64,000 nt of DNA from contig CM057158.1 of the NCBI GenBank assembly GCA_029962745.1, forward strand, positions 6,199,869-6,263,868. Reading direction: 5' to 3'. This document shows, one piece after another, positions 2,805 through 59,975 of this stretch. Numbering within the stretch: position 1 is the first letter of the stretch; every line of letters starts with the position of its first letter. The stretch comes from Echinometra lucunter. Its lineage: Eukaryota > Echinodermata > Echinoidea > Camarodonta > Echinometridae. The position numbers and the translations under genes were made by a program. The notes beneath the pieces are model-generated. The model worked only from the letters and a program-made list of their open reading frames with translations, made no database searches and was not told the origin of the DNA.

Positions 2805-3908
2805 GTCAGATGAGAAAAAGGGAGGAAAATAGAGTCGATGGTGAATAAAGTTTTGAGTGAAGAAAAGAGTGTGAAAACAAGAGATATAAATAAGTCTACA
2901 TCTAATGTAGAGAAGAAACCCTCATGGTATTTGTGCTTCTAAGGCCTTTTTTTCTGGTATTGTAAGTAAAGTCTTAACCAGAACAATCAGTATCTTGCCT
3001 TAAAGCAGTTCATTTCAGGGTTATTTTGTTTTTACTTGGGAAAGAAATCGGCAAAGAAAAATATGGAAATTGAGTGTAAAATATAGCATCTTTTCAGTTG
3101 ACCACACAGGAACTCTGGATTTTAGCAGCTTTCATCAGACTCCATATCATAATCATCCCAGGTTTTTGTTTGCCATAAATAATGAAAGGAATGACTGTTT
3201 TATTGTTGTTTTGGGTGCATACAGCAGTCAGGGTTAGATGCTTTTTTTGTGCTAAAAAGACTTAACCCAAATACAGGGCACCCTTTTTTGTAATGTTTGC
3301 CCACTCCACGACTGCGGTTTAGGTATTGTGTCAGAAGAAAATGGAATGATTCATTTGAGCATAATGAAATAGACTTATGGAACAATTTTGTGGTCTATTT
3401 GGCTTGCTGAATCTACACATAAGACATTGTTGTGTTGATGATATAGCATGTTTGAAAAAAAAAAAAAAAAAAACTACTGCCAGTTTTTATCACAATACAA
3501 GAACATGCTTCTTCACTTAAGCTGGAGAGTTAGTGAAAGTCATTTTTGAAATCATTTCAATTTCTATTCATTTCCTATTTCTTTGTACATCATATAAGGA
3601 CCTTGAAATTCGCTATATCAACAAAATTTCCAATATTAAATTTGATTCATAACACATGTATGATTCATACCCTTCATCACTCTATGCTAAACCATTTCAT
3701 AGCTTAAAATCTGTTCTGCTCTCCCCTTATATCCATTGTATTGGACTAAGAAGATTTTTTTTTCAGAAATTCCAAACTGACTCATGAATTTGTGAAATTG
3801 ATATCAATGAACACTTTTGATATCAATCTTAAAATGTGCCAATCGCCAGAAGACAATTTGCTTTTTATGTTCGCTGTCACTGCACTGTATTTGGAATATA
3901 ATCTTTAA

Positions 3909-4384
3909 AGGAATTGGTTAACATTGTTATAATTTTTTAAAAATCATTTTGCTTCTTGAAAATGGGATAAGCATAAGGGTTATGGTGTAAAAATACCAGT
4001 CTGAAAATTTCAAAGTATAATATCCACAGGAAGTATTTTTAAATATGTGAACCAATATTTGAAAAATATATATGGGTCGGTTGCACAGACTAGACGTAAG
4101 GAGTGCACATACGCGTATGGCTCATCGGACCGTACTGTGTGTATTGACGTATCACGTGGAGGGAGGCAGATAATGGTTTTTTGAACTTGAGCAAAATGGT
4201 CCACTTATTTATTGTCTATGAGACCAAAAATGATAGAATCGTAGTTTACATCTTACTAACAGTTTTTCATTCCAAATTATGGTTGGTTTCAGGGTTTTTG
4301 AGTACAAATACAAGTACTCATACACATGTTTCATCTTAGTATGAGAATTTTTAAATTGGCTGCTCACAAAGTGAGCCATTGCCT
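3909..4384 (+). mobile_element. TTAA-flanked miniature element family F1, copy 1 (476 bp)
   Basis: Flanked by TTAA at 3905-3908 and 4385-4388. It starts AGGAATTGGTTAACATTGTT and ends TGAGCCATTGCCT, imperfect terminal inverted repeats. The interior includes GGGTCGGTTGCACAGACTAG and ATTATGGTTGGTTTCAGGG, which recur in the copies at 34264 (same strand) and 39796 (opposite strand). No coding capacity; a non-autonomous DNA transposon copy. Confidence 0.85.
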
Positions 4385-5233
4385 TTAACTTTACAAATAT
4401 GTGTTAAAATTTTCAATATCCATCAGTGCTGCAGCATGACAAGGTCAATGTTAGATGATCTTGAGAGGTGGTGAAATAAAGCATTTCCTCCAGAACTCAA
4501 GAGCACATTCTATACTTCCTTTTAGAATTTTTTTTTATCGGCAGACCTGTGCAATATTGGTCTATATTTCAATCTGTGAGAACATCATATTTGTAAGATT
4601 TATGTACATACTTGAAGATTGATATCCGTCAAGTCGATAACTATATTTTAGGGCCATATACTTTCACAAATATTTCATCTAGGGTTGTTTTGAAAATATG
4701 GAAATTTAAAAAAATTGGGATTCATTTCTGATTACTTAAAAAAGTGATTGGAGTCACTAGAGACACAAAACTTGTGAATTTATGAATTTTTCAAACAGCA
4801 TGAACTGTTTCATATGTGCTGGTATTAATATTATTTTTAACTTTTTAAGTTTAACCATATTTTTACCTATTGAATTGCAAAGTGATTCTGCAGTTGTTCT
4901 TAGTATTTCCTGAATACAATTATCTTTTTTTTAGGGGAGGGGGAGACTGGGTATTGTAAGAAAAATTGTGATTGTTCATGAAAAATTTGTCATGTTATAA
5001 AATGGGGTTATGTATAAAATATCTGTGAATTGCCTCATATTTCTTTCCATTCTTGATAGGTTCCTTGGCATCCTCAGCATGATTGAAAATGTCCTGAGGA
5101 GAAGCACCTTCATGACACATTTTTCCTTTTCCTGATTATGTGTCTGGCAGAGGTGTGTCATACAGGTGAAGGTCAAGGTGACTGATCCCTTCTGATTATC
5201 ACTGGTGGATTATTTTGAAAAAGGAGGAGGGGA

Positions 5234-33913: not shown

Positions 33914-34263
33914 TTTATGTTGGAGTAGAGAAATGGAGAGGATGTCAATCAATGTTAGTGTATTATCACCTTCAGAGAAGGCTGCCTCTACTACCAACAT
34001 TTCCTATTTCATGAGATTTCTTTGAATTTGTCTAAATCCCCTGGAATTTCTGTCAAGACTCTTGACTTGTTCAACAATGGGTCAAGGATGCTAGATGCTT
34101 TTGATAGCTTTCCAAACATCAGTGGACTTGACACATATCTTGATTGCCAAAGTCAAAGAGAAAATGTTGCTTTAATCTTGATGTGGGATTAAAGGTGTAC
34201 AAGAAGAGGCTTTTTTCTCTCTCTTTCTGATTGAGGATGAAAGCCCCTATGAAGCAAGGTTAA

Positions 34264-34751
34264 AGACATTGGTTAACATTGTTATGATTTTAAAAAATCT
34301 TGTTTTGTTACTTGAAAATGGGATAAACATAAGGGTTATTGTGTAAAAATACTAGTCTGAAAGTTTCAAAGTATAATATTCACAGGAAGTATTTTCAAAT
34401 ATCAAAAATGTGAACCAATGTTTAAAAAATATACGAGGGTCGGTTGCACAGAATAGACATAAGGAGTGCGCATGCGTGTATGACTCACCTTACCTTACTG
34501 TGTGTATTGGCGTATCACGCTGCGGGAGGCACATAACGGCATTTTCAAATTCAAGCAAAGTGGTCCTCTTAGTGATTGTCTCGTGAGACAAAGGATAATG
34601 AAAATCGTCGTTTGCATCTAACTTACACTTTTTCATTCCAAATTATGGTTGGTTTCAGGGTTTTTGAGTACAAATGCAAGTACTCATACACATGTTTCAT
34701 CTTAGTTTGAGAATTTTTTAAATCAGCTACTCACAAAGTTAGCCAATGCCT
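34264..34751 (+). mobile_element. TTAA-flanked miniature element family F1, copy 2 (488 bp)
   Basis: TTAA at 34260-34263 and 34752-34755. The ends AGACATTGGTTAACATTGTT and AAAGTTAGCCAATGCCT are inverted repeats. It is the closest to intact of the three copies and shares the same interior (GGGTCGGTTGCACAGAATAG, GCATGCGTGTATG, ATTATGGTTGGTTTCAGGG). Confidence 0.88.
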
Positions 34752-37700
34752 TTAAGGAAAACCTAAAGCACTTTAGGCCTATATGATATAGGAAAAAGTG
34801 AAATGTCAGATTATGAGGAATTTTGAGACTGCATGTGGCAGCTGGCTCAATGAAATTTTCCTTTAACTCAAGGATGAATCTGAAAATATAGCAAAAGATA
34901 TTAAAAACCGAAATGGCAGAGAATCATGCATGCATTCATACCATAAACCTTGCAGGATATGAATAAAACCAAATCATTAAATTATATATCAAATTGGTAA
35001 ATGAAAATTGAAAATATTTGGACTTGATTTGCTTTATTTTTCCTAAGCTAGAAGTTGTAAACACCCTATCTCACCCCCTCTCCCCCCCCCCCCCGAATTT
35101 TGTCAGTTCTTCAGTAAATGGTGCATGGTGTGAGATTTGATTTCAAAGTGAGAATTACTACTGCCTTTACTGTACCAACACTTCAAACAGTTCACCTCAA
35201 GAGTCACCGCAGCTCAAAGATCTAGGCCTTGATTACCACTGGAAATTGTCTAAACCAACTTCGCATCAAATGTCATAATATTTACCATTGGAGAGATAAA
35301 GAGTGCATGTATCTAGTATGCCATGTTTACCAGAGCCAACCTAGGGGGTTTGACTTGAAGAGGCTTCATCTTCAAATGCACTTGAAGTAACTTGAAGTCT
35401 CTTCAAGAAGTCTTATCGAGGATTCTTGGATAAGACGATATCATGATAATGAAATTGAAAAGTCTCCTTGGATTAATGGAAGGTGAATTGGTGGATTGAG
35501 AGACTGCTTTTATTGGTATTAAAGAGAGGAACTTGTATTTGCAATCCATGAAAGACGGTGTGTGGTAGACCCATATAATTACATAGGATGTCAGAAAATA
35601 GGACCTACTGCACACATTGATGCTGATCACTTTAGTTTGTGATGTTTTATATCACATGTGAATTCAGTCTCCTAATGTTCTTTATAAGAAAAGTTGTTTA
35701 TTGGTACTTAGGAAACTAAACCATTTCTGGGCTTGTACATAAGTTTTGAATCATTGGCTATTTTGAGGAAAATACAATGTGATTTTATACCTGATTAGTG
35801 GGTTTTTTTTTTTTCATCTTTGGTTCTTATTGGTGATCATCCATGTCGATTAGCCTTTTGATTGCCAGTCCAGATGATTACATTTATTGTGAGGGATTAT
35901 AATGCATAACAGCTGCCATGATTTATGGAATAAAGAAGTAGACACATTCATACAAAATTTCGGCAATCTCTTATCTTGTGTACAGGATGAACAGAGGGCC
36001 TCCTAAAGCATAATTAGAAACATTGTTACTTTGAAGCTAGATTATGGTCTCTTCTTCTTCTTCAAACTTTTCCTTTGTATTGCATCTGTACCATTATTGA
36101 AGGTTCTGTCCAGGGAATTTTTGCTAGGAATGCATCTCCAGGATTTCAAACTGGGCATGAAATTGTCCTGCTAATACAAGCACATTAAGTGATAACATGC
36201 TGTGAAATGTGACAAGATGGTATTATTGTAGAATTACATTCTAAATCCACATCATCAAAGAAAAGAATGACAGTTACAATTCTGCCTAGATTAGATGTAA
36301 TCTTCTTTAGTATCCGAGTTTCGTTGTCTTCTTCCTTATCTTCTTATTGTCTGTTTTATATCTTTTTTTTTCTGGCTCTTTCCTTCTGCTATTTTCTTTT
36401 CTTCATGTTCCATCGCTAGTACCTTTTCTTCCATCTTGTCATTCTTATTCTCCTCCTGCCTTCCTTATCTCTTTTATGTCCTTCAGTGAACATGAAGTGT
36501 GATTGCAGTTGCTCTCAGGAGTCAAGGTATTGATGTTGTTTCTGTTGAATTTATACATCTAGGCCTCTTAATGATGTCCAGAAATATTGGGGAGGAAATT
36601 TGTAGATTTATTCACTTATGGAAAAATGTTTACTTTGTGCAGGCAGACTTTGAATATAGTATATGTATTCTCTTCCAATTTTTGTATGGTGACCAAACTT
36701 TATCATACGAAAAGTAGTGTGCAATGTAAAAATAGGGGGCTTTGACTTTGGGTATAAGATCTAAATTCTTTCCTCCCCCTCCCCCCAAACTGAAACCAAT
36801 CTCCTGACAAAAAAATGGAAGAAAAAAATGTTTTCCAAGTCAGATTTTGGTTTGCACCTCGGCGAATTGCCTGGGTGAGGTGGACCTACTTTGAACAATT
36901 CCCAGAGTGTGTTGGATGACTATTTTTATCCCACACACCCCAGAGAGCAACTCCAAATAAAGCCGATATGTATGGCGCAAGGTGCGAAACGATGTCCAAA
37001 ATTCAGAGAGGTGTTTCAAGGGCCAGGAGAATTAGACCGAAAGTCTTTCACCAATTCTCATGGCTTAGTTTGAAGGAGAGGTGTCAAATTTTGTCTCCCT
37101 CTCCTTTCTCTCTTTCTTCATATATTTTTTCTTATGCCAAGGAATGAGATCATCAAATTATGCTTAGGTTACTTGAGTTATGTAGCAAGATGTTAGAATA
37201 CACTGTGGGAATAACTGCAAAGAGAAGAAAACTTTAGAACAAAGATTTGGAGCAAATAAAGATTGGTGTAAGCTTTCGTCTTGAGGGTAATGCTATAGCT
37301 GGTGGCATTGCTGGAAGGTATCGAATGATATAAAGATCAAATGAAAAAAAAAGTGTTTTGTTCAAAATTTCTATGCCTTTCATGTATTAGGTTGTCATGT
37401 TGCTTTTTATTTAAAAAAAAAAAAAGTAATTGGTGAAATGTGTGAAGTGCTACCAGCGTACCATTTTCTTGGGAGGGGGGGACACTTAGCATCTTAGTTT
37501 GGCTATTATCAAGCTATTTTTCATCTCAAATCTAAGAAATCTGATCGAGAGGTCTTGAGTGCCTACCAAAACTGTACATAACCTGTAATGGTACCTTGTC
37601 CGTGCTCACAGAAAGACATTTACAAGAATTGGCAAGAAAAAATAGGTCTCCCTTTCTTGTGATTCTTTTCTAGGAGTTCTTCAGTTTCCTCCAGAAGACC

Positions 37701-39390: not shown

Positions 39391-39795
39391 ATTTAGGATG
39401 ATATTTGTGTCTCATTCCCGACCTATATAAGCTTAATATAGAGATAACAGTCATGATCGGTCCATAATCAAATTTATTCAAGCAAGATGTCAGAGCCAAA
39501 CAATTTTTTATGTCAACAATATTTTCTTCTAATGTTAACTCTTTTTTATCAGTTTCTGAAAGTGGGGAGGTAGAGGGAACAAAGTTTTGTTCATGGCTTC
39601 CATAAAAGTGAAATAAAATGATCTTATATAATCCATTCTTCAAGAACAGAAGAATAATGATTTGCGCATGATTATTTTTTGTGTCATCAGTTCCATCAGT
39701 ATTATACATCAGTCAAGGCTGCAAAATATGCAGTTATGTTGATGCAGATGTAATAGTCTCTTTATTGGAATCATTATTATGAACGTGTTTATTAA

Positions 39796-40282
39796 AGCTA
39801 TTGGCTAACTTTGTGAGCAGCCGATTTAAAAAATTCTCAACTTAAGATGAAACATGTGTATGAGTACTTGTATTTGTACTCAAAACCCCTGAAACCAACC
39901 ATAATTTGGAATGAAAAACTGTTAGTAAGACGCAAACCGTGATTTTATCATTTTTGGTCTCAGAGACAATAAATAAGAGGACCGTTTTGCTGGAGTTCAA
40001 AAATACAGTTATCTGTCTCCCTCTGCGTGATACGCCAATACACACATTCCGTTACGGTGAGCCATGTGCACATGCACACTCCTTACTTCTAGTCTGTGCA
40101 ACCGACCCGATATATATGTTTCAAACATTGGTTCACATTTCTAATATTTAAAAATACTTCCTGTGGATACTATACTTTGAAACTTTCAGACAGGTATTTT
40201 TACACTATAACCTTTATGTTCATCCTATTTTCAAGTAGCAAAATGAGTTTTAAGAAAATCATAACAATGTTAACCAATACCT
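39796..40282 (-). mobile_element. TTAA-flanked miniature element family F1, copy 3 (487 bp)
   Basis: Flanked by TTAA at 39792-39795 and 40283-40286, in the opposite orientation to the copies at 3909 and 34264. It starts AGCTATTGGCTAACTTTGTG and ends AACAATGTTAACCAATACCT. The shared interior is present in reverse (CCCTGAAACCAACCATAAT, AGTCTGTGCAACCGACCC). Confidence 0.87.
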
Positions 40283-40767
40283 TTAATTTATGCCTGGTAT
40301 GTTTTTGTTAAATTTCCTTTGATGTGTACATCAATGTATTGTTGTGTGGTAGAAAAGTGTTTTTCCCTATATTACTTGAATATCCATAGAGCTTGTCAAG
40401 ATCTCTGAAAGGTATTGAAAGTTATTTCAGCCATTTACAGGAATGTTCTGAAAAAACAGAGGACTACACCGTTGGTTCCCGTCATGATTCAAGTTGAATC
40501 ATTTGAGTTATCTTTGGTGTAACTTTGAACTCTTAAACTGCTGTAGCATATTTGTGGTAACATGGGTTGACCACAATAGCCTGTCATTGTGCAGAAGTTA
40601 ACATCACTGTCAGGTTTTAGTGTGATCAGGTAGGAAAATGTTCGAAGGGTCAGTCACATTATGCCTGTATGTCTCTCAATGTTTTAAACTAGTTCTCTAT
40701 TTGCAATATTTTTAAAGGATCTTGGTTGAATGTACTCAAAATCAAATGGTTCCCAGTTAGCCAGCTT

Positions 40768-49700: not shown

Positions 49701-49821
49701 TTAATGATGCTGCTTATAGACTGTGTTGCCATGTGGGGAATGTGTTTGTTCTCAATATGAATGGATTAAATAGATTAATTGAATTCTCATTTTTTATTTC
49801 ATCTTTCTTTCACTTGCACAG

Positions 49822-50033
49822 ATCAACCACACCCTCCTGAAGAACCAGTCTTTTTCCTGGATGAATATCCTAATGTGAATGGAACTTTGTTTGAAACCAG
49901 AAAACGGCGTTCAATAGCAGGGAACGTTCACAGGAATCAGTACGTCGAGACGCTGGTTGTGGTGGATAAACATATGATCAAGAAACATGGGAGTGATAAA
50001 ATCACTGCATATGTTCTCACAATATTCAACATG
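49822..50033 (+). CDS. ADAMTS16/18: ADAMTS16/18-like metalloprotease, internal exon: furin site and start of catalytic domain
   Basis: This 212 bp exon supplies the last two bases of the split Tyr codon and then 70 codons, ending exactly at a codon boundary before donor GTATGT. In the joined 175-residue fragment it covers residues 77-147. It contains a proline-rich linker, an N-glycosylation sequon (N96), the proprotein convertase site RKRR at 103-106, where cleavage before Ser107 would release the mature enzyme, and the opening of the reprolysin (M12B) domain at YVETLVVVDKHMIKKHG (from residue 117), ending at LTIFNM. The VETLVVVDK...HG...T.Y.LT..NM pattern is typical of ADAMTS catalytic domains. 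The protein would be cleaved in the trans-Golgi or at the cell surface and act outside the cell. Nothing in the exon is broken. Confidence 0.93.
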
Positions 50034-52640
50034 GTATGTATGACAAGATTTTAAATTTCTGTAGTATTGCATTTCATCATCGAAAGCAAGGACATAACTC
50101 ATAGTTTTCAGTGTAGATTAATTACTTTTCTGTCTCAGCAGGTGAGTTGTGCATTTGTAATTTTGTCCTGTTTGTTTGTTAATGGTAGTCCTGTTTTAAT
50201 CATTGATGAAGCCGAAGTGGGAGTATGGAGATATAACCCATATTTATTTTGAGACATTTTGGAAAACATTTTGTCAATGAATATGAAAATAAAACAGGCT
50301 TATTTCTGTATGATTCTGTACAATTTGTTAGCAAAGTTGTTTGGCCTGCTCCCTCCCCTATGAAAAAGTAAACTGACATGTTCATAAAGGACAATGTAGA
50401 TCAAAATAAAATTGTGAATGTGAAAAAGGGAATCTGTCAGTTATATTGGAAAGTTTGTTGCAGTGTTTATTTTGATGTTTGCAATCAGTTTTAACAAAGG
50501 CTCATATCACAGTTTTCACTTTTATCACCAACATGAAACCTCAAAGAAAGTCTCTAAACTCTGTTTCTCCATATCTCCTAGCTCATAGGGGTATCCATTT
50601 TGTCCATGCCCCTAATAGTAAAATGTAATAAGGCAGGACTGGGGAAAGCTTTGGTGTCTTGGGAATCATTGGAAACAAGTGGCCTAGTTTCTCTCCAATG
50701 ATCTCATTGGCGTAAATACTATGAACTTTTATTCAAGGGCATTTCTGTTATGAATTTTAGTTCTAGTTCTAGTGTTCTTCCCCCTCCCTCCCCTTTGATG
50801 AGAGAAAGGTAAATAACCGACAGCTATTATTTTTTTCTCTCTTTTGTGATGTGTCATTTTTCTCATGTTGATAAATTTTCATATGCATTAGGGTGCAATT
50901 GAAGCTGCTATTGTGAGGGGATTAGGAATATTAAGGAGAAAGAATGGAAATTCAACGGCTGTCACATTGCATAAAAAAGATATTTTTCACCTCTTGTTGA
51001 AAAGTTGTGTGGGTAAAGGGCAAAGAATTGCTCACAGAATTAGAAAATTGTTTTATAAACTGGGTTTCCTGTGTAGACACAGCATAGAAATGGCTCAATT
51101 GGTCTGGTTGCAAATTCAGAATGGTGATGTGGGAAGGGGATAGGGGAAATGCTAATATTATCGGCATTCTTTTGATGTAATAGTACATTGTTTGGATTTC
51201 ATTCCTTTTAAGCCCATTTTAGGAACAGGGGTAATTTCAGTTTAGCCATTTACTTTTCATTGAGCATTGATGGCCTAGTTTTATGAGGGTGTTGATTAAA
51301 CTGCATGGTACAAAGCATTGGAATACAATATCACCTTTGAAGTGCAAGTTAACAAAATGAGGATACTCAAATTGTCCTTTCCAAAGGTATTGTTTTCTGT
51401 AATAAGGGGAAATGTATTTGAAAGTCGGCCAACACTTTATTAAAAGAAGTAAGATATATTGCTGAAGCTCTGAATGAGAAGATATTGCAAATAGATATAT
51501 GTGTGACAAATTTGTGAAATTGAATACAAGTCCCTCAAGTGAAACCAAGGTTGTTGGTGATTTCCTTTTTACAGCCCTCCTGTAACCAACTTCTATAACC
51601 AACTTCTTTCGTTTGTAACATTACATGTCAACAGCATTCATGGGCTACTTTCATCAAACTGAACCACTCAATCAACAAACTTGAGGAAGAAGAAAAGAAA
51701 GTTGATTAAATCAACTACCAAAAGAAATGCTGGCATATTTCTATTTCATTCACTGGTCAATAGCAATTTAAGAATGGAATGCAGAAGTTTCAAGTTTTTA
51801 TTAACCAGTGGACAAAACTCTTTTGAAAGCTGCCTGGAAAGCGGGCAGTTGTCAATTAACTGGACGTTGAATGACCGCAATATTGCAAATCCACTCCCTC
51901 AACATGTTGAATTGATTGAAGCTAAACTGATATGAATTGCTGGCTTTGATGAAGAGAAGGAAATTGAATGGGCCGTTTTTATTCCACTGGTGTGTCCCCA
52001 TTTGTATCATTGTCATATAAATCAGAGATTTGAGTGAGATTGTTTGTTTCTAAACACGGAATTGGTCCAATATGTGAGTCCTTCAGATTGTGAAGCGGAT
52101 ACTTAAGTGGAAGTAGATTTATAGCACCTGAAATAAGTTGAAAATTGATTTTTATTTTTTTGCTCAAAGTGTTTGTTTTCAACAATTTGCCTCTCCCAAG
52201 ATAATTTGTAAGGTTATAGGTGAAATCTGTTTTTAATTTCAGGAATTGAATTTGCTAGAATTGGCTGAATTTTATTGGATCAAGATCAAAGAGTGATATG
52301 GACATTGTAAATAACTTTGAATATTCTTTACATGTTTGACAATTACAGAAACACACTTCTGATATATTTATGAGCCACATATCAATTTGATTTCATTTTC
52401 AAGTTAGTGTATGTTGGTTTCATAAAAAGCTGACATTTTATATACTTGTATAATTTGATAGCTCTGATAGTTAAAGATATAATTGCATATTTGAAATTTC
52501 AGCTAAAGGATCTTGAAGTATTCTTTGTTTTGTGTGCTTTCTTATGAATCAATTTTAAAGTTTGTTCAGATCAATAACGCATCCTATACATTGTACTGTA
52601 TCGTCCTAAGACATAAGCTCTGTTATTCTTTCTTTTGCAG
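50034..52640 (+). other. 2.6 kb phase-0 intron of the ADAMTS16/18-like gene
   Basis: The donor is GTATGT at 50034; the acceptor follows a clear pyrimidine run (TTATTCTTTCTTTTGCAG) ending at 52640. It falls between two codons. The interior is AT-rich and has no recognised repeat or coding segment; short open frames at 50913-51143 and 51681-51935 show no known domain. Confidence 0.85.
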
Positions 52641-55570: not shown

Positions 55571-55578
55571 AAATGTGT
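55571..55578. repeat. Target site duplication, left copy (AAATGTGT)
   Basis: These eight bases recur exactly at 59968-59975, directly outside the other end of the large inverted-repeat element. A perfect 8 bp match at exactly these two places defines the insertion boundaries. Confidence 0.88.
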
Positions 55579-55599
55579 ATGGCACGCCATAAGGGAATC

Positions 55600-56000
55600 A
55601 ATACAAAATATATTTCACTTGAACAAATATATGATTCTTTTTCTCTAAACCATTTCACTCTAGCAAATTTATATTTCACTTCTAAAAAAAAAAATTCCAC
55701 TTATCACAAAAATTCATTTCACAGTTTCCACAAAAATATTATTTCACTCTTCACAAAAATATATTTCATTTTCTTCCAAAATACATTCCACTTTTTCACA
55801 GTAATATATTTTACTCTTCACAAATATATATTTCACATTTTTGCAAAATTCGTTCCACTTTTCACAGGAATACATTTTACTCTTCACAAAAATATATTTC
55901 ACTTTTTTTCCAAAATTCGTTCCACTTTTCACAGGAATACATTTCACTTTTCACAAAACATTTCACTTTTTCACAAAATGTCATTCCACTTTTAAGAAAA
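55600..56000. repeat. Left-arm minisatellite, ~22 bp units
   Basis: Repeating TTTCACTTTTCACAAAAATA-like units of 21-24 bp with variants (TTCCAC, TTTTACTC, CACAGGAATAC). They give a Phe/His/Ser/Lys-rich open frame of 183 residues, which is an artefact of the unit. The array is about 90 bp longer than its counterpart in the right arm. Confidence 0.85.
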
Positions 56001-56379
56001 AAAAAATCATTCCTCTTTCTCTCATACTAAAACCTTTTTACTTTCTGCCAAAAATATGTTCCTCTTTTATCTCGGCCTAAAGCGATCTTATCGACCTGGG
56101 TAAGCTTAACGGCCTTGGTGAGCTTATCTTTGGCTTAGCTAGCTAGCTCATCTACGCGCGTTCTATCGATGGTGTACCTAAAATCCATTCCTCTTCTCTC
56201 ACCTAAACCATTTCACTTTCTCTCACGAAATCATTTCACTCTGCCAGAAAAATACGTTCCTCTTTTTTCTCGGCCTGCAGGAGGCGCTATTGGCGAGTTT
56301 TGCTAGCTTGTTAGCTTGGCGCGGGCTATACCTTTTGTCATTTGCTTGTTTAGCATCGGTATTGTTTTGTTATTCAGTT

Positions 56380-56730
56380 TGGTCTGATGGGGCTGAAGGG
56401 GGAGGGGGGCGGCTTTGAGGCTGCTGCACTTGATTTTGAAGTTCATTAATACATCCAATTTATGCCGGGATATATGCAGGGTGAACAAGGGATGCTACCT
56501 CTACAGGCGAACTTTGATTTTGCTTGTTTTGCCTTTTGGGGCTTGGTGGGGGTGTGGAGTCTTCTGCATATGATTTTGAAGTATGTACATTTATCAAGGT
56601 TTATGCAGGGTGAATGATGGATGCTGCTTCTCCCGTTGGTCTGGCAAGGCTATATAGGTGAGGGAGGGGGGTAAGTTTCTGCACATGATTTTGAATATTC
56701 TGCATTAATGTAGCGCCTAAGCTTTCTCTC
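56380..56730. repeat. Inner-arm block with three related subrepeats
   Basis: CTGCACTTGATTTTGAAGT, CTGCATATGATTTTGAAGT and CTGCACATGATTTTGAATA occur at about 110-135 bp spacing, with TATGCAGGGTGAA and GGATGCT words between them. The same three blocks appear inverted in the right arm at about 58970-59240. Confidence 0.75.
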
Positions 56731-57016
56731 TGAAATGTGTCTAAGCGCTTTAGAGAAATATCATTACCCCGGTCATCGGATTCATGCAAGCTTGCCCGCA
56801 CACAATGTATGCACCTTTCTGCACAGCATTAATTCCGGCCAGTCGCACTCACATTGCTAAACAAATCACAATGGCCGTCGCATCTTACCGGTTATACCAC
56901 TTAATGGGTGAAGAGTGGCAAATGTACGTAAATTCATATCTTGCAGAAGGACACCCCGGACATCGTGGCTCAAGTAAGGATACTTATCCACTGGACCACA
57001 GCATCTCTTCTATGCA

Positions 57017-57042
57017 TTTTTTTTTTTTTTTGGGGGGGGGGG
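57017..57042. repeat. T run followed by G run at the inner end of the left arm
   Basis: About 15 T followed directly by about 10 G. The right arm has no such tract at the corresponding place, so the tract grew or was inserted after the arms formed. Confidence 0.75.
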
Positions 57043-58031
57043 CTTGAATTCTCATGAAGTAAAACTCTATGCAAGCCAAATGGAGGAAGAGGCAGGGAGG
57101 GGGTGTCACGGCATATTATTGTTACCAAAATGTGCAGGGTATTGTAATTCCTCGCAAAACTTGCCGCCCGATTCATTAGATGCAACAATATCAGTACCAT
57201 AATTATGATTATATTCATAAATAGAATTGGTTTAACATCAGATGGAGACGCAAGATGTAAACCAATTATTTTGTTTTGTTAAAATGTGTAGGCCTATAAT
57301 AGATAGCATATACAATAAGGCCAACAATGCGAGCGAGCGCTTCCATTTTGTCCTTTCTTACATCTTTCCTTTTCTTTCTCTGTCTTTTCTTTTCTTTCCC
57401 ATTTTTCTTTTTTTTTCCCTGCCAAATATTTCCCCCGACCATGAGTGTTGCAACTTGTCGATTGCTTCCAGTTCTACTCCAGTTCAAATGTCTATTTTTA
57501 TTGTGGCAGTGGCCCAGACGCGGTTCTGTGAATTTTTCTAAATTGGGGTGGGGGAGTACACTGGCAGCTTCAGGGATCGCAATGAATTTAAATTCAAAAT
57601 TTAAATTTAAAATTAAAATTAATTGATTTAAATCCAACCCTTCAGAAACATTCACAATCTAAAAACATAACAGAACATAATAACAAAAAACGGACATAAA
57701 ACATAAACACTGAACAAAACAGAAAATGAGAATGCATTTCTAATTACATTTTACATTCCAAGAATAGCACGAGAGAGAGAGAGAGAGAGAGAAACACCCA
57801 CGACCTGCACGAGCCGATTCAGAATATAATAAAACAAACTGTCTTCGGACTCTTTACACATACATGTATTTATAATGAAGATATGACACAGATCATACAG
57901 ATTGTGATGCATAACAAAACATAATGAATATCTGAGAAATGCATGTACATAACAACCTGTATGAAAATAAAACGCAGAAATTAGGTTAGAATAACTACTG
58001 AAAGTTATCTACTTATATTTCTCCTTATGAC

Positions 58032-58376
58032 TTGCATTCCATGTTGCACACAACCACCCCCTTCTTCCAACTGTACACAAACCAACAAGATAACTTCGAT
58101 CATGCAAAGAGAATTTGTTTATCATACCTCAAACAAAAACATGGCGAACGCTCATTTGCTCATGCTGCATCAGTTTTATGGAATAACCTCCCAAACTCTC
58201 TGAGAAACATCAGCACGATAGAGAAGTTTAAATCTGCACTTAACATTCAAAACATATCTTAGTCTAACAAAGTAACAGTGACCTTTCTTTTAATCATGTC
58301 TTTCCCTTTCTCTCTCTTAGAGCGCATAGGGACCTACTTATGCGCTATAAAATCTGTACATTATTGTTATCATTAT
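58032..58376 (+). mobile_element. 3' end of a LINE (non-LTR) retrotransposon, CR1/L2-like
   Basis: The frame 58032-58261 ends with RSFAHAASVLWNNLPNSLR followed by STIEKFKSALN and a stop. The pattern (R.F..AA..LWN.LP..LR....FK..L) is the typical C-terminus of reverse transcriptase polyproteins of CR1/L2/Rex-like LINEs. About 60 bp after the stop a short hairpin (AGCGCATA ... TATGCGCT, 58321-58346) is followed by a TTATTGTTATCATTAT tail, as found at the 3' ends of such elements. The rest of the reverse transcriptase is missing, which is the usual 5' truncation. It sits within the foldback element. Confidence 0.75.
58321..58346 (+). other. LINE 3' hairpin
   Basis: AGCGCATA pairs with TATGCGCT around a ten-base loop. 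In LINEs of this type the 3' hairpin and the short repeat tail after it serve as recognition sequence for the reverse transcriptase. The role here is inferred from position and shape. Confidence 0.65.
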
Positions 58377-58449
58377 AGCTTGCATAAAGTTTTACTTCAT
58401 GAGAATTCAGCCAACAAAATTTGCATAGTAGAGGTGCTGTGACCCAGCC

Positions 58450-58770
58450 ATATATCAAATTATTATTAATCTTAATTAATTGAAATTAGTATTGATGGCA
58501 GGAAACTCTATTCAGAGCCATTATTCAAATGGCTCTGTTCTTCCTAGAGGTCCAGAGAAAGAAAGAAAAAGTAATGAACAAAAAAAAAACAACAACACAA
58601 AACATGACATTACCACAAATTGAACTGAAAGTAACATAAACAGAATAAAAGAATTCGTGTTAACAAAACCCAGTGACCTTACGCTAATGCGGCCCTATTC
58701 CTAACATTCATATTACATGTATGTCCAACGTACCCTACCCCCCCCCCTCCATTCCTGAGATGCACCAAAA
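58450..58770. other. Right-arm segment without counterpart in the left arm
   Basis: Between the inner matching block (58378-58450) and the rest of the right arm (from about 58770) lies about 320 bp that I cannot match to the left arm; the left arm instead has its own segment around 56900-56990. It includes CAAATGGCTCTG with an inverted copy CAGAGCCATTATT nearby (58510-58540), and a C-rich run (58736-58747). It may be a secondary insertion. Confidence 0.55.
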
Positions 58771-59639
58771 TTTGCCACTCTCCATGGTGATGATTTGTTT
58801 AGCATTGTGAGTTCGACTGGCCGGAATTAATGCTGTGCAGAAGGTGCATACATTGTGTGCGGGCAAGCTTGCATGAATCCGATGACCGGGGTAATGATAT
58901 TTCTCTAAAGCGCTTAGACACAGTTCAGAGAGAAAGCTTAGGCGCTACATTAATGCAGAATATTCAAAATCATGTGCAGAAACTTACCCCCCTCCCTCAC
59001 CTCTATAACCTTGCCAGACCAACGGGAGAAGCAGCATCCATCATTCACCCTGCATAAACCTTGATAAATGTACATACTTCAAAATCATGTGCAGAAGACT
59101 CCAAACCCCCACCAAGCCCCAAGAGGCAAAATAAGCAAAACCAAAGTTCGCCTGTAGAGGTAGCATCCCTTGTTCACCCTGCATATATCCCTGCATAAAT
59201 TGGATGTATTAATGAACTTCAAAATCAAGTGCAGAAGCCTCAAAGCCGCCCCCTTCAGCCCCATCAGACCAAATAGAATAACAAAACATTAATACCGATG
59301 CTAAACAAGCAAATGACAAAAAATATAGCCCGCGCCAAGCTAACAAGCTAGCAAAACTCGCCAATAGCGCCTCCTTTAGGCCGAGAAAAAAGAGGAACAT
59401 ATTTTTTTGGCAGAGTGAAATAAATTATTGAGAGAGAGTGAAATGGTTTCGGTGAGAGAAGAGGAATGGATTTTAGGTACACCGTCGATAGAACGCGCGT
59501 ATATGAGCTAGCTAGCTAAGCCATAGATAAGCTCGCCAAGGCCGTTAAGCTCACCCAGGTCGATAAGATCGCTTTAGGCCGAGATAAAAGAGGAACATAT
59601 TTTTGGCAGAAAGTGAAAAGGTTTTAGTATGAGAGAAAG

Positions 59640-59950
59640 AGGAATGATTTTTTTTTCTTAAAAGTGAAATGTATTCCTGTGAAAAGTGGAACGAATTTTG
59701 GAAAAAAAGTGAAATATATTTTTGTGAAGAGTAAAATATATTTCTGTGAAAAAGTGGAATGTATTTTGGAAGAAAGTGGAATATATTTTTGTGAATAGTG
59801 AAACAATATTTTTGTGGAAACTGTGAAACGAATTTTTGTGAAAAGTGGAATGCTTTTTTTAAAGAAGGGAAATATAAATTTGCTGGAGTGAAATGGTTTA
59901 GTGAAAAAGAAACATATATTTGTTCAAGTGAAATATATTTTAATTTGATT
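59640..59950. repeat. Right-arm minisatellite, ~22 bp units
   Basis: The mirror of the left-arm array: GTGAAATATATTTTTGTGAAAAG-like units in inverted orientation. Fewer units than on the left. A 154-residue open frame on the - strand (59551-60015) arises from it and is not a gene. Confidence 0.85.
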
Positions 59951-59967
59951 CCCTTATGGCGTGCCAT

Positions 59968-59975
59968 AAATGTGT
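59968..59975. repeat. Target site duplication, right copy (AAATGTGT)
   Basis: Exact match to 55571-55578, directly outside the right end of the large element. Confidence 0.88.

What the first reader, a model, noticed from the sequence alone, without database searches (positions are those of the whole stretch)
55571..59975. A 4.4 kb foldback transposon with 1.5 kb arms and a perfect 8 bp target duplication
The two ends are exact inverses, the arms match for about 1.5 kb, and AAATGTGT flanks both sides exactly. The first 12 bases of the end (ATGGCACGCCAT) are themselves close to a palindrome. The structure recalls the TU elements reported from sea urchin, yet the outer repeat unit is about 22 bp rather than the shorter unit I remember for TU, so it may be a distinct family. 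It has no visible transposase and so depends on an unknown source.
Basis: partly seen in the sequence, partly recalled or inferred. Interest (0 to 1): 0.85.

Follow-up and report, generated by a model that had tools for sequence, protein, structure and literature searches.

The report
Foldback transposon with six-base duplications

Summary
The foldback element is real, but its boundaries need correcting. It runs from 55578 to 59968 (4391 bp), with termini 5'-TATGGCACGCCATAAGGG...CCCTTATGGCGTGCCATA-3' and a 6-bp target duplication, AATGTG (55572-55577 / 59969-59974). The "perfect 8 bp duplication" is this 6-mer plus two chance matches. In the host genome (743 Mb, unnamed), 34 of 36 end pairs examined carry an exact 6-bp duplication. 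A paralogous empty site at another copy confirms these boundaries. The terminal 21-mer occurs 168 times exactly; of 57 pairs compiled from the listed ends, 41 span 4.30-4.65 kb.

No transposase was seen in the window copy (41 of 41 frames without a Pfam match above cut-off) or in other frames that I listed. The TA..TA termini and 6-bp duplication fit published IS3EU/GingerRoot hallmarks, including TAYGG..CCRTA ends. I propose a non-autonomous IS3EU-type foldback family. This rests on ends and duplication only; no transposase sharing these ends was found, and hAT6 is the main rival.

The middle carries a LINE-like fragment, and the window copy looks chimeric. Identity with sea-urchin TU elements could not be tested.

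The parts
55578..59968 (.). whole foldback element, 4391 bp, TATGGC...GCCATA
   Evidence: ends shared with other copies and abutted by 6-bp duplications; empty site at another copy, L036
55572..55577 (+). target site duplication, left copy, AATGTG
   Evidence: 6-bp duplication in 34 of 36 pairs examined
59969..59974 (+). target site duplication, right copy, AATGTG
   Evidence: same calls; the flanking A (55571) and T (59975) match by chance
55578..55591 (+). terminal near-palindrome TATGGCACGCCATA (left end)
   Evidence: sequence; shared by other copies
59955..59968 (-). terminal near-palindrome (right end)
   Evidence: sequence
55578..57076 (+). left arm, about 1.50 kb
   Evidence: self-alignment
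58378..59968 (-). right arm, about 1.59 kb
   Evidence: self-alignment
55673..56001 (+). outer domain: about 15 copies of a 22-bp unit (ATTTCACTTTTCACAAAAATAC)
   Evidence: Tandem Repeats Finder; spacing of TTYCAY motifs
59652..59860 (-). outer domain, right arm, about 9 copies of the 22-bp unit
56002..56868 (+). inner arm domain, pairs with 58791-59651
58791..59651 (-). inner arm domain, right
57077..58377 (.). middle segment, about 1.3 kb, shared by most full-length copies read, no transposase seen
   Evidence: no Pfam match above cut-off in any of the 41 frames of 45 or more codons overlapping the element
58002..58259 (+). LINE-like C-terminal protein fragment inside the middle segment (86 codons)
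   Evidence: motif recalled (AHAASVLWNNLPNSLRNI...FKSAL), no Pfam match above cut-off; the piece lies in copies of the family and also in other loci that match mainly residues about 12-83

Best explanation
A non-autonomous foldback DNA transposon of an amplified family. It is excised or copied and inserted by a DDE transposase acting in trans on the TATGGC..GCCATA ends. Strand transfer staggered by 6 bp, filled in by repair, gives the 6-bp duplication. The ends and stagger match the IS3EU/GingerRoot superfamily (integrase-like transposase), so an IS3EU-type enzyme is the most likely mover. The 22-bp TTTCAC repeats in the arms may be extra transposase-binding sites. Shown: boundaries, 6-bp duplication, copy family, no recognisable protein in the window copy. 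Inferred: superfamily, enzyme in trans, role of the 22-bp repeats.
For: 168 exact 21-bp ends against 0 for the reversed control. Exact 6-bp duplication in 34 of 36 pairs: 23 of 25, the split pair L031/L032, and 10 of 10 further pairs. A length scan of the fetched sequence gave 6 bp: 23 (all family); 5, 7 and 8 bp: 0; 4 bp: 1 non-family. At L036 the unit of a ~210-bp tandem duplication that lacks the insert holds CACCAG once and matches the joined flanks over 209 columns, 205 identical. [quoted passage not shown] rust-fungus IS3EU '6 bp TSDs', TIRs over 30 bp, ends 'TAYGG..CCRTA' (PMC12730594, passages). The ends here are TATGG..CCATA.
Against: No transposase was found between these ends. The oversized pairs that I read in whole or in part (L029, L030, L031, L033, L034, and 3-kb samples L075 and L076) showed no transposase; L075 has a weak retrotransposon-gag match below cut-off. 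Integrase profiles (PF13683, 51 matches; NF033577, 67 matches) hit no place inside the 57 compiled pairs. In one search, 42 of 67 matches lie in frames of 900 codons or more, as in LTR retroelements; the other 25 were mostly not read, so an IS3EU gene could be among them. hAT6 families also make 6-bp duplications. L034 shows no duplication; L030's right flank is masked.
Confidence: 0.7

Rival explanations
1. hAT6-type foldback: a hAT transposase that makes 6-bp duplications moves it.
For: hAT families with 6-bp duplications are described (PMC12730594, passages).
Against: The TATGG start is not the usual hAT terminus (recalled), whereas it fits the published IS3EU TAYGG..CCRTA. No hAT gene was seen in the copies read, but no transposase of any kind was. 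No genome search for hAT was run.
Confidence: 0.12
2. Member of the sea-urchin TU foldback family as first described, with a true 8-bp duplication and an unknown mover.
For: Modular architecture: long arms with an outer tandem domain and an inner domain, and a middle that holds a piece of a dispersed repeat. The TU description itself is recalled.
Against: 8 bp fails in this family: only 3 of the 33 pairs compared (the window copy, L021, L029) match over 8 bp, and the empty site excludes it. The TU unit length (15 bp, recalled) differs from 22 bp.
Confidence: 0.15
3. Foldback of the Mutator/Phantom or P (Galileo-like) type, as for FB, Tm1 and Galileo.
For: Most foldbacks seem to belong to Mutator, with exceptions; Galileo belongs to P (PMC4079207, passages and reference list).
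Against: Duplication is 6 bp in 34 of 36 pairs, not the 9 bp (Mutator) or 7-8 bp (P) recalled as usual for these groups. One passage gives 4-10 bp for the wider MuDR/IS256 group, so length alone does not exclude Mutator.
Confidence: 0.06
4. Not a transposon: an inverted duplication formed by template switching, with a chance flank match.
For: Arms alone could arise so.
Against: Many dispersed copies share both ends, each with its own exact 6-bp duplication, and there is an empty site.
Confidence: 0.01

Closest known systems
IS3EU / GingerRoot DNA transposons
   Same: TA..TA termini, TAYGG..CCRTA in rust-fungus families, 6-bp duplications (PMC10045372 and PMC12730594, passages)
   Different: no transposase gene seen; arms about 1.5 kb with tandem repeats; the literature listings did not show a foldback form
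TU elements of sea urchin (recalled; the 1983 report is cited in PMC4079207)
   Same: long inverted repeats with outer tandem and inner domains, modular middle (recalled)
   Different: 6-bp rather than 8-bp duplication; 22-bp rather than 15-bp unit (TU values recalled); no sequence comparison possible
Tetris and Galileo foldbacks of Drosophila (PMC4079207, passages)
   Same: long arms with internal tandem repeats; autonomous partner of Tetris not found
   Different: different hosts and repeat units (about 220 bp in Tetris); Galileo belongs to P
Dada (PMC3706591, passages)
   Same: 6-7 bp duplications
   Different: no terminal inverted repeats found in Dada, which targets small RNA genes; here the arms are long and the duplications diverse

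Membership tests
foldback transposon (structural class) | long inverted arms that fill most of the element | tested here: met
   arms about 3.1 of 4.4 kb
foldback transposon (structural class) | tandem repeats within the arms | tested here: met
foldback transposon (structural class) | dispersed copies with target duplications | tested here: met
IS3EU/GingerRoot | TA..TA termini | tested here: met
   empty site; definition
IS3EU/GingerRoot | 6-bp duplication | tested here: met
   34 of 36 pairs
IS3EU/GingerRoot | IS3EU-lineage DDE transposase between the same ends | tested here: inconclusive
   none seen in the frames listed or scanned; profile searches hit no compiled pair, 25 shorter-frame matches mostly unread
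TU elements | sequence similarity of ends and outer repeat to TU | not testable with these tools
   no TU sequence at hand; literature searches returned no paper
TU elements | 8-bp duplication (recalled) | tested here: not met
hAT (hAT6) | hAT transposase in an autonomous partner | not tested
   no genome search run for hAT domains
Dada | no terminal inverted repeats, insertion into small RNA genes | tested here: not met
   long arms and diverse duplications; the targets were not screened for small RNA genes beyond the window, where one search found no Rfam match; definition

The most novel reading that the evidence does not exclude
This is a foldback clade of the IS3EU/GingerRoot superfamily, moved by a retroviral-integrase-like transposase. 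The historic sea-urchin TU elements may belong to the same clade, their reported 8-bp duplications (recalled) being 6-bp duplications read with a terminal T and A.
Probability: 0.4. Interest if true: 0.6.

Novelty: new variant of a known kind. Interest (0 to 1): 0.45.

Why it matters
The movers of some foldback elements are unknown, and most seem to belong to Mutator (PMC4079207, passages). A family of dozens of copies with a fixed 6-bp duplication and TA..TA ends makes a specific, testable claim: an integrase-like IS3EU enzyme mobilises foldbacks. It also shows that a single copy can mislead on duplication length, a key for assigning superfamilies.

Tried and rejected
Autonomous partner by size: the larger pairs read are the family element with other insertions and no transposase seen; L075 and L076 are 3-kb samples only. 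Partner by end: patterns that exclude the family arm gave 3 hits (control 2) and 5 hits (control 0). Of those 5, four are family copies and one, at C12:17129492, is followed by unrelated letters. A 3-mismatch pattern gave 116 hits against 19 for the control, many of them from one dispersed sequence, TATGGCAAGCCAAATGGGATTCT, with 247 + 247 exact copies.

Integrase search with PF13683: 51 matches, six fetched (L069-L074). Four (L069, L072, L073, L074) show RNase H or reverse transcriptase features by reading; L070 and L071 I could not assign. NF033577: 67 matches, none above its cut-off. PF13333 was asked twice, never answered, and not asked again. Dada was considered and rejected. The end hairpin is not unusually stable. 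An empty site for the window copy itself was asked three times without answer. L015 against L018 also spans a joint, but only at 70%, and is not used.

Rows left out: of the 41 sequences scanned, 25 hold an inverted pair; L034 (no match) and L030 (right flank masked) are counted as misses; the other 16 lack one end, of which L031 and L032 together make the split pair that I counted. The copies are not a random sample: one search took best matches, size outliers and single ends, ten further listed pairs. The pair list was compiled by hand from the first 100 places and, from C15 on, which lists only ends followed by AAA; at C1:53676033/53676501 it paired the inner of two left ends.
Full report
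OBSERVATION. The inverted structure is real. Within the element (offsets counted from 55579), blastn pairs 92-1290 with 3213-4359 at 88.0%, 1-314 with 4074-4389 at 91.8%, and an inner stretch at window 57045-57076 with 58378-58409 at 97%. A global alignment shows the inner arm domain at 89-99 matches per 100 columns, large gaps in the tandem outer domain, and poor similarity just before the innermost matching stretch. The arms share 20 exact blocks of 20 bp or more, 855 bp in all, the longest 82. The outer domain is a 22-bp tandem repeat, about 15 units on the left and 9 on the right. In the window the terminal 22-mer occurs only at the two ends. Elsewhere in the window the element finds only short hits of 59 bases or fewer, many of them to a simple repeat in the middle segment.

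HOST COPIES. The first 330 bp gave 47 matches from 40 scored of 234 candidates, a lower bound. The 21-mer ATGGCACGCCATAAGGGAATC occurs 83 + 85 times exactly, 0 in the reversed control. From the places listed I compiled 138 ends and 57 inverted pairs. Their median span is 4440 bp; 41 of 57 lie between 4300 and 4650; the extremes are 1580 and 12263. Most of the full-length copies read match the window element along its length, including the middle, in either orientation, at roughly 89-95%.

BOUNDARIES. In the pairs printed the base before ATGGC is T and the base after GCCAT is A, whatever the neighbourhood; one search agrees. With ends TATGGC..GCCATA, 23 of 25 pairs in the fetched loci have an exact 6-bp duplication; the exceptions are L034 (none) and L030 (flank masked). 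The pair split over L031 and L032 has GATGTC twice. Ten further pairs, fetched only as 51-base pieces, have it in 10 of 10. Total 34 of 36. If the duplication were 8 bp, the next base on the left would always be A and on the right T: both hold in 3 of 33 pairs (the window copy, L021, L029), A alone counting 14 and T 7. A scan for TAYGG..CCRTA ends with an exact flank repeat gave 23 hits at 6 bp, all family; none at 5, 7 or 8; one non-family hit at 4. At L036 the insertion sits in one unit of a ~210-bp tandem duplication; the other unit is empty and contains CACCAG once, aligned with the joined flanks over 209 columns with 205 identities and 3 gaps. The base after CACCAG in the empty unit is G, so the T belongs to the element.

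NO TRANSPOSASE SEEN. All 41 frames of 45 or more codons that overlap the window element and pass a complexity filter were scanned against Pfam: 4 and 37. None has a match above its curated cut-off. Frames were listed by eye for L010, L019, L022, L023, L024, L026 and L028; L026 holds a LINE-like endonuclease frame outside the family match. In larger pairs, the extra parts of L029, L030, L031, L033 and L034 show no frame over 144 codons; nine of these frames, sampled from four of the loci, gave no Pfam match above cut-off. L075 (C21) has a frame with a weak gag match below cut-off, L076 (C18) one frame of 95 codons; both are 3-kb samples of larger inserts. Searches for variant ends gave no paired family. 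Integrase profiles found 51 and 67 matches, none inside the 57 compiled pairs. In one search, 42 of 67 lie in frames of 900 codons or more, as in LTR retroelements; the remaining 25 were mostly not read. So absence of a partner is not shown; only that none was seen.

SUPERFAMILY. Passages of PMC10045372 state that complete IS3EU families always have TA..TA termini and usually 6-bp duplications, and that GingerRoot makes 6-bp duplications with mostly TA..TA ends. Passages of PMC12730594 give 6-bp duplications and TAYGG..CCRTA ends for rust-fungus IS3EU, and note hAT6 with 6-bp duplications. The family here has TATGG..CCATA and 6 bp. This is a match of two hallmarks, not a phylogeny. Literature listings: IS3EU with foldback or fold-back returned 45 papers holding at least two of the three terms, and the 15 listed held no IS3EU; IS3EU with sea urchin returned none. 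These cover open-licence papers only.

ARCHITECTURE AND HISTORY. For the 19 copies of at least 3.5 kb used (38 arms; of the 23 with duplications), 36 of 38 arms have at least one arm of another copy nearer than their own mate. The window's left arm is 1.5% from L011's right arm and 5.0% from its own mate; its right arm is 1.8% from L023's right arm. Along the element the left 3.6 kb is 96-100% identical to the L009/L011/L014 group in nearly all 200-base windows, while 59178-59377 is 99% identical to L017 and 93% to L009 and L011; beyond that the difference between groups is small. The window copy thus looks chimeric, by recombination or conversion between copies. The middle carries a LINE-like C-terminal piece (58002-58259; motif recalled). 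The genome search with it had 3696 first-look candidates, 150 scored; many lie inside family copies. Seven others that I checked on C2, C7, C9, C12, C13 and C14, at 75-84% identity over about residues 12-83, lie over 1 Mb from any listed end. The middle therefore holds a piece of a dispersed repeat, as recalled for TU.

MECHANISM. Shown: dispersed family, 6-bp duplication on insertion, no recognisable protein in the window copy. Inferred: mobilisation in trans by an IS3EU-type DDE transposase; 22-bp TTTCAC units as added binding sites, by analogy with Galileo (PMC4079207, passages); exchange between copies by recombination or conversion.

Noticed in passing
49779-50051: A frame resembling the start of an ADAMTS metalloprotease domain (weak match to ADAMTS-1, E 0.077; no Pfam match), perhaps an exon.
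   Followed up: partly
3905-4388; 34260-34755; 39792-40286: Three copies of a dispersed repeat of about 495 bp, 85-87% alike, the third inverted.
   Followed up: no
L036:13-340: Tandem ~210-bp units, one empty and one holding a 1580-bp copy: a natural empty site.
   Followed up: yes
59178-59968: Switch from one subfamily-like sequence to another in the window copy, clear at 59178-59377.
   Followed up: partly
G000: 23-mer TATGGCAAGCCAAATGGGATTCT, resembling the element end, occurs 247 + 247 times with no inverted pair within 12 kb seen among the first 100 listed; nature unresolved.
   Followed up: partly
L022:5545-6268; L023:333-1145; L040:300-1215: Copies with two ends in the same direction 0.4-0.5 kb apart; in L040 the flank is duplicated too, exactly over 136 bp.
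   Followed up: partly
1867-2552: Repetitive region that resembles the right flank of copy L021.
   Followed up: no
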